Assembly (NCBI GenBank): GCA_024276655.1
Contig: JAJRWU010000285.1
Location: 1-57,350, forward strand
Source: Planctomycetota bacterium
GTDB lineage: Bacteria > Planctomycetota > Planctomycetia > Pirellulales > Pirellulaceae
Direction of reading: 5' to 3'
DNA length: 57,350 bases
Below, one piece after another: positions 1-57,350 of the stretch; the stretch's first letter is position 1, and every line of letters starts with the position of its first letter. A model generated the notes under the pieces. It was given only the letters and a program-made list of their open reading frames with translations. It was not told where the DNA came from and did not search any database. Both the position numbers and the translations under genes were made by a program.

Positions 1-127
<127 letters not shown>

Positions 128-3511: not shown

Positions 3512-4558
3512 TTACTCGCCTTGCCAATCTGTTTCCGCCTGGAACTTCAAAACCGCCTCGACTAGGTCGTCGGCGCCGTGCCGGAACACATCGCACACCG
3601 GCAGGCCGAATTCCTTCCGTATGCGTTCTCGCTCTTGTTCGGCTGCGTCGGGCGTGAGCGTGCGGCTGTTCATCGCGATACCAATCACATCGCACGGCCG
3701 CATCAGCCGGGCCATGGTTTCATACGCCTGCAAGATGCGCGCCAGCGGCGGAATGCGCACATGCCCAACGCCATGCACCATTTCGCGCCCCGCTTCGTAG
3801 CAGAGAATCAATGCATGCGGCAAACATCCATGCAACAAGCCGAGTGTGACGGCCGAATACGAAGGATGGGCCAAACTGCCTTGGCCCTCGACCAACAAAA
3901 TTTCATGTTCTTGATTCTGGAGGACCAACTTCTCCGCCGCCCCGCTGACAAAATCGGCCACCACGCAATCGATCGGGCAGCCATCGCCTTCGACCATGAT
4001 TCCCGTCTGGCCAGTGGCGACGAATTTTGCATCGTGGCTGCGGCTGCGCAGCCCGGCGGCAACTTCGATGGAAACCACCATCTTGCCGATGCTGCAATCG
4101 TTGCCAACAGTGTGAATGCGGAGGCAGTCGGGCCGCAGTCCTTGCCGGCGGGCGACATCGCGATGGTCGTTCTTGCGCACATCGGTCAAGGTGCAACCCG
4201 CTTCGGCGGCGGCGGCCACGAACTGGGCGTCGTCGGTGAGGAAGTCGTGCAGGCCGGAAACGATGTCGAGTCCTTGAGAGAGCGCCGAAAGAATGACGGC
4301 CCGCCAAGCGGCGGGAATCTTGCCGCCGGTGGGCGCGATGCCGATCAGCAACGTGTTGGCGCTGGGCGCCTCTTGCACGCTCCGCACAATGGGGATATCG
4401 CCGCCGACGCAGAACAGCTCTTGCGCCGTCTTACCGGCTTGAGTGCTATCGAGCACGGCCACAACTTCTTCGCCGCGATAGCGAATAACGCTGCACGCCG
4501 TTTTCCCCGTGGACGGATTCGAATGGCCTTCGGTGAGAATAATCAGTTTGCGAGTCAT
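3512..4558 (-). CDS. DUF1611 family protein (DgcN-like D-glutamate N-acetyltransferase candidate)
   Basis: 348 aa. It shows the DUF1611 layout: an N-terminal Rossmann-like domain (residues 1-140, GIAPTGGKIP) and a P-loop-like second domain with TVGNDCSIGKM around residue 152, then TGQTGIMVEGDG and VEGQGSLAHPSYSAVT. DUF1611 members paired with an enolase-superfamily epimerase have been reported as D-glutamate N-acetyltransferases (DgcN), feeding the product to the racemase DgcA. The same gene pair is seen here, in the order DUF1611 then epimerase. The acetyltransferase role is therefore transferred by family and context, not shown by a motif I can verify. Confidence 0.8.
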   Translation of the reverse strand: MTRKLIILTEGHSNPSTGKTACSVIRYRGEEVVAVLDSTQAGKTAQELFCVGGDIPIVRSVQEAPSANTLLIGIAPTGGKIPAAWRAVILSALSQGLDIVSGLHDFLTDDAQFVAAAAEAGCTLTDVRKNDHRDVARRQGLRPDCLRIHTVGNDCSIGKMVVSIEVAAGLRSRSHDAKFVATGQTGIMVEGDGCPIDCVVADFVSGAAEKLVLQNQEHEILLVEGQGSLAHPSYSAVTLGLLHGCLPHALILCYEAGREMVHGVGHVRIPPLARILQAYETMARLMRPCDVIGIAMNSRTLTPDAAEQERERIRKEFGLPVCDVFRHGADDLVEAVLKFQAETDWQGE

Positions 4559-4653
4559 GTGCGGTTAAATACCTCAAACGGCTGGAAGCAAGCCGAGATT
4601 ATAACCGCTCAAAACCCCGAGCGTACTCCACGGGCAAACACCTGTGAAGTGTA

Positions 4654-5592
4654 TTATTTTTTCGCGTCCTCGCGGGCTGAAAGATACTGCCGGCAGGTCG
4701 ACCACAACGACCGCTGGTAGTTCGTCGAGACGAGCGTCGGCTCTCGCGCCAGCGAGCGGCAAAAGTGCGTCAGGGCGATAAGTTGTTCGTCGGTCAGATT
4801 CGCGCTGCTGGGGTGCGGCGTGCCCGGCATTCCCAGTAACAGACGCAAGTAAATCGACTCCATCGTCGAGCCTCCCTTGAGTGGTTCATGGACCAAATCG
4901 CGAGGGCGGGTTTGACGGCGTTTGTTGTCGACCAGCCAAACATCCTGCGCGCCGACGCCATCGTCGCCATGGCATGCCTGGCAGCCTTGCTTGAAGTACA
5001 GATTCCCGCCCGCGACCACCTGTCTGGGGTCGGGATCGCCGAATATTGGCACGATGGTCTCTTGCGGCGTCGTGCGCTGGGCCACCAGTTGTTCTAGCTC
5101 CTGTTCGCTGAATTCCCGTTGGTCGGATTCCAGTTCGGCAGTCGCGGCGGCGCGGGCGCCCGCTCGCCAAAACGCAAGCACCTGCCGGGCCAAAAGCGTT
5201 CGTTGGCTGGCGGGCAGGTTATCGAAAGATTGCATGGAGGTTCCAGGAACGCCGTGCTGGATCACGCGCTCGATATCTTGCCGCGTAGCGCGACGGTTCC
5301 GCGTGCTCACGAGGCGAAATTCGCCCGAGCGAAAATCTCGCGGCTTGGGGTGCAGGTTACGCGTGGCCGGCCCTTTTCCATCTCCCTTGAGGCCATGACA
5401 GGCACTGCAATGCGAGGCGAATAATTCCGGGCCCGTCTTTGGCGGCGCCGACTCCGCCAAACTGTTTTTCACCGTGGGTGAAGCCGCATCGCCCGACGCC
5501 CATGAATGTTTCCCGCTCAAGAACAGGCCCAGCGCCAACAGGCAAACGACACCCAGCGGATAAACAAAATAACGAAGGTAATTCTGGAGCAA
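4654..5592 (-). CDS. diheme c-type cytochrome, membrane-anchored
   Basis: 312 aa. An N-terminal membrane segment (residues 7-28) is followed by two class I cytochrome c domains, with haem sites CSACH at residues 62-66 and CQACH at 204-208. GTSM near residue 120 could supply the first axial Met, and LLLGMPG near the C terminus the second. A linker rich in Glu/Gln separates the domains. The start is TTG with GGAG 8 bases upstream; no better ATG exists. It probably carries electrons on the periplasmic side. It follows the DUF1501 gene on the same strand, but a terminator-like element lies between them. Confidence 0.85.
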   Translation of the reverse strand: MLQNYLRYFVYPLGVVCLLALGLFLSGKHSWASGDAASPTVKNSLAESAPPKTGPELFASHCSACHGLKGDGKGPATRNLHPKPRDFRSGEFRLVSTRNRRATRQDIERVIQHGVPGTSMQSFDNLPASQRTLLARQVLAFWRAGARAAATAELESDQREFSEQELEQLVAQRTTPQETIVPIFGDPDPRQVVAGGNLYFKQGCQACHGDDGVGAQDVWLVDNKRRQTRPRDLVHEPLKGGSTMESIYLRLLLGMPGTPHPSSANLTDEQLIALTHFCRSLAREPTLVSTNYQRSLWSTCRQYLSAREDAKK

Positions 5593-5629: not shown

Positions 5630-5727
5630 GGGATAGTCCTGAAATAGGTTACCGGTTTAGTTCAGAAAAGCCCGGCATTTTCAAAATGCCGGGCTTTTAA
5701 TTCGGCATGTAAATTCAAGACTGTTCC
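5630..5727. repeat. family A element with terminator-like palindrome (core 5666-5698)
   Basis: The 33-bp core is a perfect palindrome (AAAAGCCCGGCATTTT, one-base loop, mirror arm), and conserved flanks bring the element to about 98 bp. Its ends are imperfect inverted repeats (GGGATAGTC at 5630-5638, GACTGTTCC at 5719-5727). The right end overlaps the stop codon of the DUF1501 gene: the G of TAG is the first base of the repeat. The core lies 29 bases past that stop and ends in T4, so it can act as an intrinsic terminator for that gene. Confidence 0.7.
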
Positions 5728-14979: not shown

Positions 14980-15118
14980 GAGTTGAGGCCGTTTTTATTG
15001 GGGAAGTGTTTCCAGGTGATTTTTGCCACGGAGAATACCATGCAGCCGTTGGCTGTAACCAAATTCACAGGCGCGTTTCATGAGGATCATTCCCAAAACG
15101 CAAACGGACAAAAAAATG

Positions 15119-15226
15119 AACCACAGAGAGCACCGAGACCACAGAGAACGAGGAGGCCAAAAGTTCACCAACGGAAGATAACGCCCATCGCCAAAACCTC
15201 TGTGGTCTCGGTGCTCTCTGTGGTTC
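15119..15226. repeat. inverted pair of family D repeats
   Basis: CCACAGAGAGCACCGAGACC at 15121-15140 is mirrored by GGTCTCGGTGCTCTCTGTGG at 15203-15222. The two arms could pair over more than 25 bases around a ~48-bp loop. Confidence 0.8.
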
Positions 15227-15240
15227 ATTCATTGCATGGC

Positions 15241-15334
15241 TCGTTGAACGGCAAGCCGAAGGCGGCTGTGTTTTTCCGGCTTGCTCGAACGTGGCGGCTC
15301 AAAACACAGCCGCCTTCGGCTTGCCGTTCAACGA
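15241..15334. repeat. family B long inverted repeat, copy 1
   Basis: Two 34-bp arms (15241-15274 and 15301-15334) are perfectly complementary (start TCGTTGAACGGCAAGCCG), with a 26-bp spacer. It lies 14 bases beyond the gnd stop. Other copies are at 47008-47098 and 49420-49512, with unrelated spacers of 25 bp. Confidence 0.9.
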
Positions 15335-16794: not shown

Positions 16795-17253
16795 GTTTCA
16801 CTCGAATTTCAAAGGACTGAAGACAGCGACCGCAGCATCAAACTCTGTGTGCTCGGTGCTCTCCGTGGTTTATTCATTGCATAATTTGATGGAGCGGTCT
16901 GGACTCACTGGCGTTTCAAAACAATTGCCTCGAAAAAACAAGCTTTTGCAACCTTGCTTTATAGCGAGGCTGTTGGCCGCAACTAAACTCGCGATAGGCG
17001 GAGTTGTTCACGAAACGCGAGCGGGTGAAAAAAACATTTTAACCACAGAGAACACCGAGGACACAGAGAAGAAGAGGGAGGAGAGGCTGACGCTTCATGA
17101 ATGGAAGGCATCGCTCGCCGCATCAAACTCGGTGGTCTCGGTGTGCTGTGGTCCATTGCTCGTTCAACCCATGTGAGTGATTGTTTTTTTATTTCCCATT
17201 GCTGAAGTATTGCCAGTCATTGCTGTTTGTCTGTTTTCCGCCGTGCGGCCCCC
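16795..17253. other. 459-bp intergenic region with family D repeats
   Basis: It contains three family D copies (16842-16870, 17040-17072 and 17127-17155), the last two in inverted orientation. The phrase GCATCAAACTC precedes two of them, so the repeated unit is longer than the core. No gene was seen. Confidence 0.6.
17040..17155. repeat. inverted pair of family D repeats, second locus
   Basis: AACCACAGAGAACACCGAGG at 17041-17060 faces GGTGGTCTCGGTGTGCTGTGG at about 17131-17151. The arms are imperfect. Confidence 0.65.
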
Positions 17254-27348: not shown

Positions 27349-27370
27349 AGTGGTTGGTCGCACCGCGCGG

Positions 27371-27446
27371 TGTTGGAGTTCATGCTTTAGCATGTTTTCT
27401 TTTCTTCTTTCTTCGACGAACGCACGCTACAGCGTACACTCCACCG
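27371..27446. repeat. family C hairpin repeat, diverged copy
   Basis: Left arm TGTTGGAGTTCATGCTTTAG at 27371-27390; diverged right arm CGCTACAGCGTACACTCCAC at 27425-27444. It lies between the nuclease-like gene and gcvT. Confidence 0.55.
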
Positions 27447-46887: not shown

Positions 46888-47007
46888 CCCGCATGATTCA
46901 CTTCGCCATTTGTGGCAATTCCTTCCGCGCCTCGTTACACTGGTAGGCGTTGCCTCGGCTATCTGGCCAAACCATTTATACCGCTCACGGTTGAAAATGG
47001 CACATTT

Positions 47008-47098
47008 TCGTTTAACGGCAAGCCGAAGGCGACTGTGTTTTTCCTTGACCGAACGCGCTGGCTCGAAACGCAGCCGCCTTCGGCTTGCCGTTAAACGA
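47008..47098. repeat. family B long inverted repeat, copy 2
   Basis: Arms 47008-47040 and 47066-47098 (start TCGTTTAACGGCAAGCCG) have two mismatches (GACTGTG against GGCTGCG) and a 25-bp spacer unlike that of the other copies. It lies between the EthD-like gene and the Gfo/Idh/MocA gene. Confidence 0.85.
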
Positions 47099-47172
47099 GC
47101 CATTGGTAGCCGTGCGAAGTGTTAGTAAAAACTCGGTTACAAAATATATATTCCTACCAGGACACGCTAAGC

Positions 47173-49336: not shown

Positions 49337-49359
49337 CGCGCGCAGGCAATCGATGCGCG

Positions 49360-49580
49360 CCGTTGGAGTTCATGCTTCAGCATGTTTTTGGTCATGCACC
49401 TTATCCGGCTACAGGTAGATCGTTTAACGGCAAGCCGAAGGCGACTGTGTTTTGCGCAACGCGTACCGGCAAGCTGGAAAAACACAGTCGCCTTCGGCTT
49501 GCCGTTAAACGAAAAAAATCGATGTTTTCAACCGCGAGTGGTGTAACATCTTCAAAGCATGCGAAAGCGTGAACTCCTCC
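49360..49580. repeat. family C hairpin repeat interrupted by a family B element
   Basis: Left arm CGTTGGAGTTCATGCTTCAG at 49361-49380; right arm GCATGCGAAAGCGTGAACTC at about 49557-49576. In the intact copy at 51444-51520 the arms are 19 bases apart, but here they are separated by 165 bases that contain the family B element 49420-49512. Confidence 0.6.
49420..49512. repeat. family B long inverted repeat, copy 3
   Basis: Perfect 34-bp arms (49420-49453 and 49479-49512; start TCGTTTAACGGCAAGCCG) with a 25-bp spacer. Compared with copy 1, the arms differ at paired positions (GAC/GTC here, GGC/GCC there; TTTAAC/GTTAAA against TTGAAC/GTTCAA). Confidence 0.9.
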
Positions 49581-51443: not shown

Positions 51444-51520
51444 CCGTTGGAGTTCATGCTTCAGCATGTTTTCTTTCTTTATATCATCTTCAAAACATGC
51501 TGAAGCATGAACTCCAACGG
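51444..51520. repeat. family C hairpin repeat, intact copy
   Basis: Perfect 29-bp arms (51444-51472 and 51492-51520; CCGTTGGAGTTCATGCTTCA start) with a 19-bp spacer. Each arm contains a smaller palindrome ATGCTTCAGCAT. It lies just upstream of the DUF1559 start. Confidence 0.9.
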
Positions 51521-56700: not shown

Positions 56701-57220
56701 GTGGCGAGCGGCGTTCAACGGCCGCGACCGTAAATGGGCCACCAGCCCCGGCGCCGACCGTTACCGCCGGGGGCTGTATACGTTTTGGCGGCGCACGATT
56801 CCGTATCCGTCCATGGCGACTTTCGACGCGCCCAGCCGGGAGCTTTGCTCGGTGCGGCGCATTCGCACCAACACGCCGCTGCAGGCGTTTGTCGCGTTGA
56901 ACGATCCTGTGTTTGTCGAAGCGGCGCAGGCATTGGCCCGCCGCATTCTCAAGGAAGGTGGTAAAACAACCGCCGAACGGGCCCGCTTCGGGCTGGAACT
57001 CTGCCTCTGCCGCCCAGCCGATGCGGGCCAAATCGGCACGATTGTCGGGCTTTATGAAAGCGAGTTGGCGCACTACCAACAACATACGGAAGACGCGAAC
57101 AAACTCGCCACGCAGCCGCTGGGCGCGCTTTCCCAGGGAATGGACGCCGCCCAAGCCGCCGCCTGGACCGTTGTCGCGAACGTGCTGTTGAATACCGACA
57201 GCGTGCTATCAAAACCGTAA
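53729..57220 (+). CDS. planctomycete cytochrome c (PSCyt1) / DUF1549 / F5/8C-like / DUF1553 protein
   Basis: 1163 aa with a signal peptide (CASVLVILLVAGLAAEAARA). Order: haem site CFACHGPDE at residues 43-51; DUF1549 ~150-355 (with CAKCHSHKYDP); a discoidin/F5-8C-like beta-sandwich at ~510-640 (GRYLRIELPG, LAEVQVFAGEENIAGKGSA, WWELDLGGAKSIDKIVVWNR); and DUF1553 ~850-1120 (RVAVNRMWSRLFGAGIVVTEEDFG, ELCSVRRIRTNTPLQAFVALND). It is built like the protein at 7.3-10.5 kb but with a different central carbohydrate-binding-type module, and no DUF1501 partner is visible before the window ends. Its last codons and stop lie in a 15-bp tandem array. Confidence 0.92.
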   Translation: MPRFSCASVLVILLVAGLAAEAARAGTPVDFNQQIRPLLSKRCFACHGPDEEHREGGLRLDRRSAAIAPAESGETAVTPGQPEASELLARISTHDADLRMPPEGEPLSAAEIEQIKTWISQGAEYAEHWAFVGPVRPKLPAVSNSEWPRNAIDHFVLARLDAEHLSPAPTADRHTLARRVSFDLRGLPPTPEEIARFVNDDQPQAYERMVDRFLADTAYGERWARVWLDLVRYADSKGYGSDPLRTIWRYRDWVIQALNQNMPYDQFSIEQLAGDLLPQPTLEQRVATAMHRNTMTNTEGGTDDEEFRVAAIKDRVDTTWQIWMGLTMGCAKCHSHKYDPISQTEYYQFFAFFNQTADNDQPNDQPTLAAPTAEYEQQLTEHQQRVAMLKQKLNTLTPELAAKMKQWADARRPQADWTVLSTLGESTTLSRNTVAANAGATAAGSTLGINKDGVVHVKPTSLEQTTLSLTLANPLEKITGLRLELLPSASPAESQPALRSFTVSRGAGAGPQQVVGRYLRIELPGDEKMLSLAEVQVFAGEENIAGKGSAKQSSTGSNGPAHLAIDGNTSGEFHKEKSTTHTAIESNPWWELDLGGAKSIDKIVVWNRTDNDLQNRLAGYRLSVLNGERKVVWSKEPAEFPVVSAAFPLSTDGSIPLQAALSADAASSENLAAALTAAGAKKDIWPSDGKQNTARFLAASTAVLIENSKQLTFTFTFAQGGEQAAAWRFRLWATSSENFARRAETPAKIITLLDASARENTMKDTADATAKITAYFLQTEKSLAPVRQELAKLEKSRPQPPTLPVMEELPQDKQRQSFVMIKGNFLSHGENVSAAAPQAFHPFGDNLPHNRLGAARWLLHIDNPLTARVAVNRMWSRLFGAGIVVTEEDFGTQGDSPTHPELLDWLAVEFMDSGWNMKAILKTIVMSSTYRQAARVSAELAEKDPTNRLFARGPRFRLEAEMLRDQALALSGLLSRKIGGPSVYPPQPEGLWRAAFNGRDRKWATSPGADRYRRGLYTFWRRTIPYPSMATFDAPSRELCSVRRIRTNTPLQAFVALNDPVFVEAAQALARRILKEGGKTTAERARFGLELCLCRPADAGQIGTIVGLYESELAHYQQHTEDANKLATQPLGALSQGMDAAQAAAWTVVANVLLNTDSVLSKP

Positions 57221-57350
57221 ATGGCAAAACCGTAAATGGCAAAACCGTAAATGGCAAAACCGTAAATGGCAAAACCGTAAATGGCAAAACCGTAAATGGC
57301 AAAACCGTAAATGGCAAAACCGTAAATGGCAAAACCGTAAATGGCAAAAC
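57211..57350 (+). repeat. 15-bp tandem repeat (AAAACCGTAAATGGC), runs off the window
   Basis: Nine full identical units plus five bases are visible. The first unit contains the last two codons and TAA of the upstream gene. In that frame each unit reads Lys-Pro-stop-Met-Ala, so every unit holds a stop followed at once by ATG. On the minus strand the array is open and would encode LPFTV repeats, but nothing supports translation. Confidence 0.95.

What the first reader, a model, noticed from the sequence alone, without database searches (positions are those of the whole stretch)
15241..15334. Family B: 90-94-bp inverted repeats with compensatory changes between copies
Copies at 15241, 47008 and 49420 keep 33-34-bp arms and a 25-26-bp spacer, while spacer sequence is free. 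Arms differ at paired positions (TTGAAC/GTTCAA versus TTTAAC/GTTAAA; GGC/GCC versus GAC/GTC). This means the pairing is maintained by selection on an RNA or cruciform, or by arm-to-arm conversion.
Basis: seen in the sequence. Interest (0 to 1): 0.58.

Follow-up and report, generated by a model that had tools for sequence, protein, structure and literature searches.

The report
Transposase-linked DNA hairpins inside mobile carriers
The three hairpins are copies of a short mobile DNA repeat scattered at least 157 times through this uncultured planctomycete genome; the same hairpin flanks a single-strand-DNA transposase gene, and its arm sequence, more than its ability to pair, has stayed conserved in place since two sister species split.

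Summary
The inverted repeats are real: 15241-15334 and 49420-49512 are perfect, 47008-47098 is 94% complementary. They belong to one family with at least 157 paired copies. Best reading: a REPIN-like element, two inverted REP-like arms. A divergent Y1/HuH transposase gene on another contig lies between two such hairpins; homologues in Laterigemmans and a LacPavin MAG are flanked by similar arms, and other homologues by different hairpins, often with the foot GTTTA[AG]C (13 of 25 loci). Most copies are nested in a ~150-bp carrier; in 5 of 19 unshared loci one TA becomes TA at both ends. Laterigemmans has the same hairpin in a carrier with different terminal repeats.

Paired arm changes exceed chance (13 vs 0.82 expected), but one-sided changes are seven times commoner, one variable pair does not covary, mismatches show no G.U excess, and none of 20 arm differences between 24 orthologous copies is paired. 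Arms diverge 1.2% between sister species, spacer and flanks about 5%. The arm sequence is constrained, not mainly the pairing. RNA selection is not supported; rare concerted arm changes occur. New variant of a known kind (REPIN/RAYT).

The parts
15241..15274 (+). REP-like arm (left) of copy 1; foot GTTGAAC, a variant of GTTTAAC
   Evidence: core-only copy without carrier flanks
15275..15300 (.). spacer of copy 1
15301..15334 (-). REP-like arm (right, inverted) of copy 1
46977..47007 (-). carrier end of copy 2, TATACCGCTCACGGTTGAAAATG..., beginning at a TA (boundary from the family consensus)
47008..47040 (+). arm of copy 2
47041..47065 (.). spacer of copy 2
47066..47098 (-). arm of copy 2; mismatched to its partner at family positions 25 and 29
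47099..47124 (-). other carrier end of copy 2 (GCCATTGGTAGCCGTGCGAAGTG, end degenerate). The sister genome keeps this stretch but lacks the hairpin, as after a deletion between TGGTAG repeats
49400..49419 (+). degenerate carrier end of copy 3
49420..49453 (+). arm of copy 3
49454..49478 (.). spacer of copy 3
49479..49512 (-). arm of copy 3
49513..49546 (+). carrier end of copy 3 (...TGTTTTCAACCGCGAGTGGTGTAA), partly degenerate

Best explanation
Family B is a REPIN-like non-autonomous mobile element. Each arm is one REP-like unit with the foot GTTTAAC; two units in inverted orientation form the long hairpin. The likely cognate enzyme is a divergent HuH/Y1 single-strand transposase of RAYT type, whose gene in this genome (contig C129) lies between two such hairpins. 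Shown: the repeat family, the REPtron-like locus, the foot at many homologous transposase loci, the TA at insertion sites, two carriers with different terminal repeats, and slow arm evolution. Inferred: that the transposase recognises the arm on single-stranded DNA and spreads the hairpins; a small stem with a GNA triloop (GCC-GAA-GGC) inside the arm may be part of what it reads, but DNA folding of a single arm does not support it. Most copies are embedded in a ~150-bp carrier with terminal inverted repeats that goes in at TA; either the hairpin rides as cargo of a TA-targeting MITE, or the carrier ends are the transposase's own cleavage sites. After insertion the carrier ends and spacer drift at about the rate of the flanks while the arms stay nearly unchanged, so the arm sequence, probably a protein-binding site, is kept in place by purifying selection. 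The paired arm changes are a minority, best explained by occasional concerted change of both arms.
For: 157 inverted pairs against 2 lone arms in 973,530 bp of the genome. Transposase at L219 4679-5305 between hairpins 4534-4645 and 5344-5455; Laterigemmans homologue, 58% identical, flanked by three direct arms and one inverted arm; two LacPavin homologues (one with a stop) flanked by related arms. HxH and tyrosine in 16 of 16 aligned homologues, NP after it in 15; NF047646 REP-associated transposase hit, E 2e-11 and 6e-13, below its cut-off. Foot GTTTA[AG]C: 42 in 19.8 kb within 400 bp of 25 homologue loci against 4 in 44.4 kb further out (the motif was chosen from some of these loci). TA empty sites. 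Ortholog divergence: arms 20/1630, spacer 29/598, outer ends 62/1517, flanks 303/5947, gap columns left out. Hairpin in a carrier with other terminal repeats in Laterigemmans.
Against: No GTAG/GTGG foot; the protein misses the NCBIfam cut-off (43.9 and 48.9 bits vs 80). 12 of 25 homologue loci have no GTTTA[AG]C within 400 bp (two of these have near variants). A single arm folds no better than shuffles (z 0.70; other strand -0.05) and the predicted fold is not the GNA stem. Only 2 of 5 genomes seen to carry the exact arm (capped list) have a close transposase; SZUA-33, the presumed sister, has none at E <= 1e-6. No DDE_3 transposase was found to move the carrier. Copies came from a pattern demanding exact inner 12-mers, which lowers arm divergence; the remaining arm sites give 16/1054 (hand tally, tested). 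Both genomes are MAGs, so assembly or read correction could have smoothed repeat arms.
Confidence: 0.65

Rival explanations
1. An ordinary DDE-type MITE (TA target duplication, for example IS630/Tc1-mariner-like or another TA-duplicating family), whose internal palindrome is incidental; the transposase gene is flanked by copies by chance.
For: TA at both ends of the filled site and a single TA in five empty sites; imperfect terminal repeats TACYKCWCACGGYT. A hairpin-less family with similar ends exists.
Against: No DDE_3 match in the genome (other DDE families not searched); no convincing longer element with these ends in the stretches scanned. It does not explain such arms beside the homologous transposase genes in three genomes, the arms inside a carrier with different terminal repeats in Laterigemmans, or why the arms and not the terminal repeats are conserved.
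Confidence: 0.22
2. Structured RNA or transcription terminator: pairing selected in a transcript.
For: Strong hairpin; mostly intergenic; paired changes above chance.
Against: Element orientation relative to tandem genes 28 vs 26; tandem/divergent/convergent 56/21/18 against background 199/78/61; no G.U preference; one-sided changes 92 vs 13 paired, position 29 uncoupled; no Rfam match at the hairpins at gathering scores.
Confidence: 0.06
3. Pure arm-to-arm conversion (quasipalindrome correction) keeps the arms alike, with no selection.
For: Position 19: 9 paired and 1 single variant in several spacer backgrounds; in sister locus L085 an arm change is paired and the spacer collapsed.
Against: Conversion alone should not lower arm divergence fourfold (reasoning), and should give paired ortholog differences: 0 of 20 seen.
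Confidence: 0.06

Closest known systems
REPIN / RAYT (TnpA-REP) systems of gamma-proteobacteria (PMC3116915 and PMC2817692, search listing only; PMC8266576 and PMC8049555, passages read)
   Same: Inverted REP pairs in high intergenic copy, a RAYT-type HuH/Y1 gene flanked by its own repeat (REPtron), repeats also present in genomes lacking the gene (PMC8049555 passage, E. coli).
   Different: Foot GTTTA[AG]C instead of GTAG/GTGG; no W-Q motif; protein below the NF047646 cut-off; single arm without a strong predicted hairpin; most copies nested in lineage-specific carriers with TA ends.
TnpAY1 class 3 of Quentin et al. 2018 (PMC6006769; passages and sections 12, 17 and 27 read)
   Same: Found mainly in Planctomycetes, Acidobacteria and Proteobacteria; atypical secondary structures without GT[AG]G; high copy number possible; W[TA] motif, which 9 of 16 homologues here also show if the right W is compared.
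   Different: Class 3 has HuH NHVH, Y motif YV[VI][AENY]EQ and foot CnGA; here [ED]H[VTA]H, mostly YVxxNP, and GTTTA[AG]C.
TIRYT / TIRtron of Di Nocera et al. 2013 (PMC3733652, passages read)
   Same: Tyrosine transposase genes flanked by inverted repeats that can form repeat families; that paper also reports REP-like units adjoined to unrelated stem-loops.
   Different: No TA-inserting carrier and no GTTTA[AG]C foot in the passages read.
Bacterial MITEs of TA-inserting DDE transposons (recalled knowledge)
   Same: About 150 bp, no evident coding capacity, terminal inverted repeats, TA at both ends.
   Different: Contains a REPIN-like core that is the better conserved part; no matching transposase found.

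Membership tests
RAYT (protein) | HuH motif and single catalytic tyrosine (Y..NP) | tested here: met
   HxH and Tyr in 16 of 16 aligned homologues, NP in 15; Y1_Tnp 23.2 and 21.5 bits, cut-off 23
RAYT (protein) | NCBIfam NF047646 above curated cut-off | tested here: not met
   43.9 and 48.9 bits against 80
RAYT (protein) | W-Q motif linked to GTAG recognition | tested here: not met
   neither conserved W is followed by Q; motif from PMC6006769. Which W corresponds was judged by distance to the tyrosine, with the E. coli tyrosine number recalled
REPtron | transposase gene flanked by the repeat that is dispersed in the same genome | tested here: met
   own genome and Laterigemmans; two LacPavin loci with related arms
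REP | 5' GTAG/GTGG (or CGTC) tetranucleotide at the hairpin foot | tested here: not met
   foot is GTTTA[AG]C
REP | single unit folds into a hairpin | tested here: inconclusive
   own arm z 0.70 and -0.05; G312 unit z -1.56; L240 unit z -3.50
REPIN | two REPs in inverted orientation, many intergenic copies | tested here: met
   157 pairs, 2 solo arms; 35 of 157 inside crude ORF calls that cover 84% of the sequence
REPIN | repeat abundance tied to presence of the cognate RAYT | tested here: inconclusive
   exact 14-mer abundant only in G000 among the 392 sampled genomes, but only 2 of 5 arm-bearing genomes have the gene
REPIN/RAYT | ssDNA recognition and cleavage of the repeat by the transposase | not testable with these tools
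   needs biochemistry
TA-type DDE MITE | terminal inverted repeats and TA target duplication | tested here: inconclusive
   terminal repeats present; TA in 5 of 19 unshared loci, 5 keep element remnants, 9 unresolved. Duplication cannot be told from insertion next to TA by an element ending in TA
TA-type DDE MITE | related autonomous transposon in the genome | tested here: inconclusive
   DDE_3: no match; other DDE families not searched
Structured RNA family | match to a curated RNA family | tested here: not met
   no Rfam hit at the hairpins at gathering scores

The most novel reading that the evidence does not exclude
An undescribed branch of RAYT-like single-strand transposases in Planctomycetes works with REP units marked by a GTTTA[AG]C foot instead of GTAG. 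Its REPINs have been taken up as cargo by at least two carrier elements with different terminal repeats, and the host keeps the arm sequence at individual chromosomal sites by purifying selection, so each copy serves as a protein-binding site and is not mere debris.
Probability: 0.33. Interest if true: 0.72.

Novelty: new variant of a known kind. Interest (0 to 1): 0.5.

Why it matters
Whether REP/REPIN copies are selfish debris or useful to the host is an open question. Here 24 copies shared at the same sites by two related species show arms diverging four times more slowly than spacer and flank, which makes host-level selection on single copies testable. The system also links a RAYT-type enzyme to a new foot motif, and the same hairpin in carriers with different terminal repeats gives a natural experiment on what moves what.

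Tried and rejected
RNA or terminator role: rejected on gene context, orientation and G.U tests. Replication-strand bias through GC skew: none seen (p 0.33; a weak test on short stretches). An autonomous element with the carrier ends: no convincing pair in the stretches scanned, no DDE_3 gene. Solved-structure relatives of P0001 by sequence: none meaningful. The window copy at 47008 as an empty site: rejected, because the sister keeps a carrier remnant. Expecting the transposase in every genome with the arm: 2 of 5 only. A hairpin in the single arm: not supported by folding. A first alignment of homologues had minus-strand loci unturned and was replaced. Structure prediction was not run.

About print: four searches of the held library listed no paper whose title or abstract start describes this family or foot; supplementary files could not be opened, so the tables of PMC6006769 were not checked.

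Full report
Check of the observation. The three inverted repeats exist where stated: two with perfect 34-nt arms, the 47008 copy with 94% complementary 33-nt arms. The 15241 copy folds as single-stranded DNA at -49.8 kcal/mol against a shuffle mean of -17.75 (z -12.0).

Genome-wide family. An exact pattern of the two inner 12-mers finds 150 copies in the 5.96-Mb assembly. With a slightly longer pattern, 57 are mixed GGC/GTC, 40 GGC/GCC and 47 GAC/GTC, so the mismatched form is the commonest single class. In the stretches fetched around those copies plus the window (121 sequences, 973,530 bp), a single-arm profile finds 316 strong arms: 157 inverted pairs and 2 solo arms. Twenty of the copies listed start within 50 bp of a contig start, so the assembly breaks there and the true number is probably higher.

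Anatomy. Oriented copies show conserved flanks outside the arms: left TATACTTCACACGGCTAGCAATGG, right AAATGCGACATTTTCAACCGTGAGCGGTATA, imperfect inverted repeats of each other. Of 157 copies 26 could not be judged at contig edges; of the other 131, 101 have both ends, 22 one and 8 none. The reported copy at 15241 is one of the 8. The spacer is not free: the same spacer types recur.

Insertion sites. The only other genome held for the genus is G397. Eighteen of its contig lengths equal those of SZUA-33 records, so I take it to be that MAG. Located flanks are mostly 91-98% identical. 38 copies of this genome have both flanks located in the G397 sequence held (84 sequences, 1,195,648 bp): 24 are shared, 14 absent or rearranged; of 30 G397 copies located here, 5 are absent. 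Of these 19 unshared loci, five give a clean or nearly clean comparison in which one TA in the empty site becomes TA at both ends (C124, C41:4102, C190, C234 and L314), five keep element remnants (including the window copy at 47008), and nine could not be resolved (my reading). A 2-bp duplication cannot be told from insertion next to TA by an element that ends in TA.

The transposase. Y1_Tnp has two matches in this genome, one with an in-frame stop. The divergent one, on contig C129, lies between two 112-bp hairpins of the family, 4534-4645 and 5344-5455. In Laterigemmans the 58%-identical homologue is flanked by three direct arms and one inverted arm. In the LacPavin MAG two homologues, one with a stop, are flanked by related arms. 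Across 392 sampled planctomycete genomes, 14 have a homologue at E <= 1e-10. Among those 392 the exact 14-mer of the arm is abundant only here (321 hits; at most 4 elsewhere); it is also frequent in SZUA-33 and Laterigemmans records (a capped list). Other homologues are flanked by other hairpins. The foot GTTTA[AG]C occurs 42 times in 19.8 kb within 400 bp of 25 homologue loci and 4 times in 44.4 kb further out; 13 of the 25 loci have it, 12 do not. The motif was picked from some of the same loci, so the contrast is partly circular. HxH and the tyrosine are present in 16 of 16 aligned homologues, NP in 15. The NCBIfam REP-associated model hits at E 2e-11 and 6e-13 but below its cut-off. Only 2 of 5 genomes seen to carry the exact arm have a close homologue, so the gene is not required for presence of the repeat.

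Does a single arm fold? The arm holds GCC-GAA-GGC, with GNA in the loop in 394 of 402 arms; that GNA triloops are stable in DNA is recalled. But folding does not support a strong hairpin in one arm: z 0.70 for one strand and -0.05 for the other, and the predicted structure is a different one. Units of two other homologues scored -1.56 and -3.50.

Carriers. In the 21 Laterigemmans loci the hairpin with a much shorter spacer occurs in 21 pairs and 9 solo arms (core about 70 nt). The terminal sequence AGCTGGACAGCGCCACTTT has 14 matches in 11 of the 21 loci; other copies show only the core. Neither carrier end was found in the other genome's loci. The stretch next to the hairpin (GGCTACCAAG there, GGCTAGCAATGG here) may be related, so only the terminal repeats are clearly different. 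This genus also has a hairpin-less family with ends like those of the carrier. Hence the reading that the hairpin is a module. Against a DDE enzyme: DDE_3 has no match here, though other DDE families were not searched.

Is pairing selected? In 226 copies (157 here, 69 in G397; 201 distinct cores) the rare variants among distinct cores are 92 one-sided and 13 paired, 0.82 paired expected if arms were independent; shared ancestry is not corrected for. Position 25 matches more than expected (132 vs 98 of 201), position 29 does not (116 vs 121.7). Position 19 gives 9 of the 13 pairs and one single, in several spacer backgrounds; the other pairs are at positions 6 (two), 13 and 22. Mismatches read in gene direction are 21 G.U and 32 A.C (p 0.17). 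Element orientation relative to tandem genes is 28 to 26, and gene contexts match background (crude ORF calls). So a pairing signal exists but is small beside one-sided change, and no RNA signature is seen.

Constraint in place. In the 24 orthologous pairs, arms differ at 20 of 1630 sites (1.2%), spacer at 29 of 598, outer ends at 62 of 1517, flanks at 303 of 5947, gaps left out (Fisher p 1.5e-14 against flank and 1.6e-6 against spacer). None of the 20 arm differences is paired. Copies here were found by an exact 12+12 match, so I also counted arm sites outside those 12-mers: 16 of 1054, 3.4 times below flank (hand tally; p 1.3e-8). In 540 kb of G397 taken without regard to copies there are 8 intact copies, 1 degenerate near-full copy and several half remnants, which suggests that decay runs mainly through loss of the hairpin. 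Both genomes are MAGs, a caveat.

Mechanism. Best supported: REP-like units moved by a RAYT-type enzyme, with carrier ends added. PMC8266576 (passages) describes how IS200/IS605-type enzymes choose cleavage sites through guide sequences 5' of the hairpin; a GTTTA foot guiding cleavage at TA would fit, but that is inference. The slower arm evolution suggests that the arm is bound by a protein at its genomic site; which protein is unknown.

Place among known systems. It works like a REPIN/RAYT system and meets the arrangement criteria, but lacks the GTAG foot, a W-Q motif and the NCBIfam score. It also differs from class 3 of PMC6006769 in HuH, Y motif and foot. I file it as a new variant of that kind.

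Noticed in passing
window 5666-5698 and seven more places (D2 family): Short hairpin of the type AAAAGCCCGGCATTTT(C/G)AAAATGCCGGGCTTTT in 8 copies, terminator-like; such hairpins also lie next to some family B copies elsewhere.
   Followed up: no
window 51444-51520, 27366-27414, 49356-49404: Repeat CCGTTGGAGTTCATGCTTCAGCATG; in G397 a family B copy (L283:2321) sits between inverted halves of such a repeat.
   Followed up: partly
window 15115-15229: Inverted repeat of ACCACAGAGAGCACCGAGACCACAGAG ending 11 bp before the 15241 hairpin; a related unit at 16816-16882 also ends in TTCATTGCAT.
   Followed up: partly
window 57195-57350: 15-bp tandem repeat (TAAATGGCAAAACCG) running to the contig end.
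   Followed up: no
window 49-127: Group II intron match, RF00029, 52.7 bits.
   Followed up: no
L288:16918, L286:8195, C88:3000 position 1537 and others: Hairpin-less family of about 75 bp with ends like TACCTCAAGCGGCTGAAAATGTGACATT...CCGTGCGAAGTA, resembling the family B carrier.
   Followed up: partly
L085:443-638: Sister ortholog of C14:5466 with collapsed spacer and a paired arm change (CGCTTAAC/GTTAAGCG), as expected of templated palindrome rearrangement.
   Followed up: partly
L074 near 2648 and L080 near 1375: In Laterigemmans half of a hairpin is joined to another repeat (GGGCTAGCGCC...GGCGGCT type).
   Followed up: no
C74, C211, C257, C311 of G000: Near-identical copies carrying a foot change on one arm (GTTTGAC; 8 such arms) and a mismatch at position 25, so perfect pairing seems not to be needed for spread.
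   Followed up: partly
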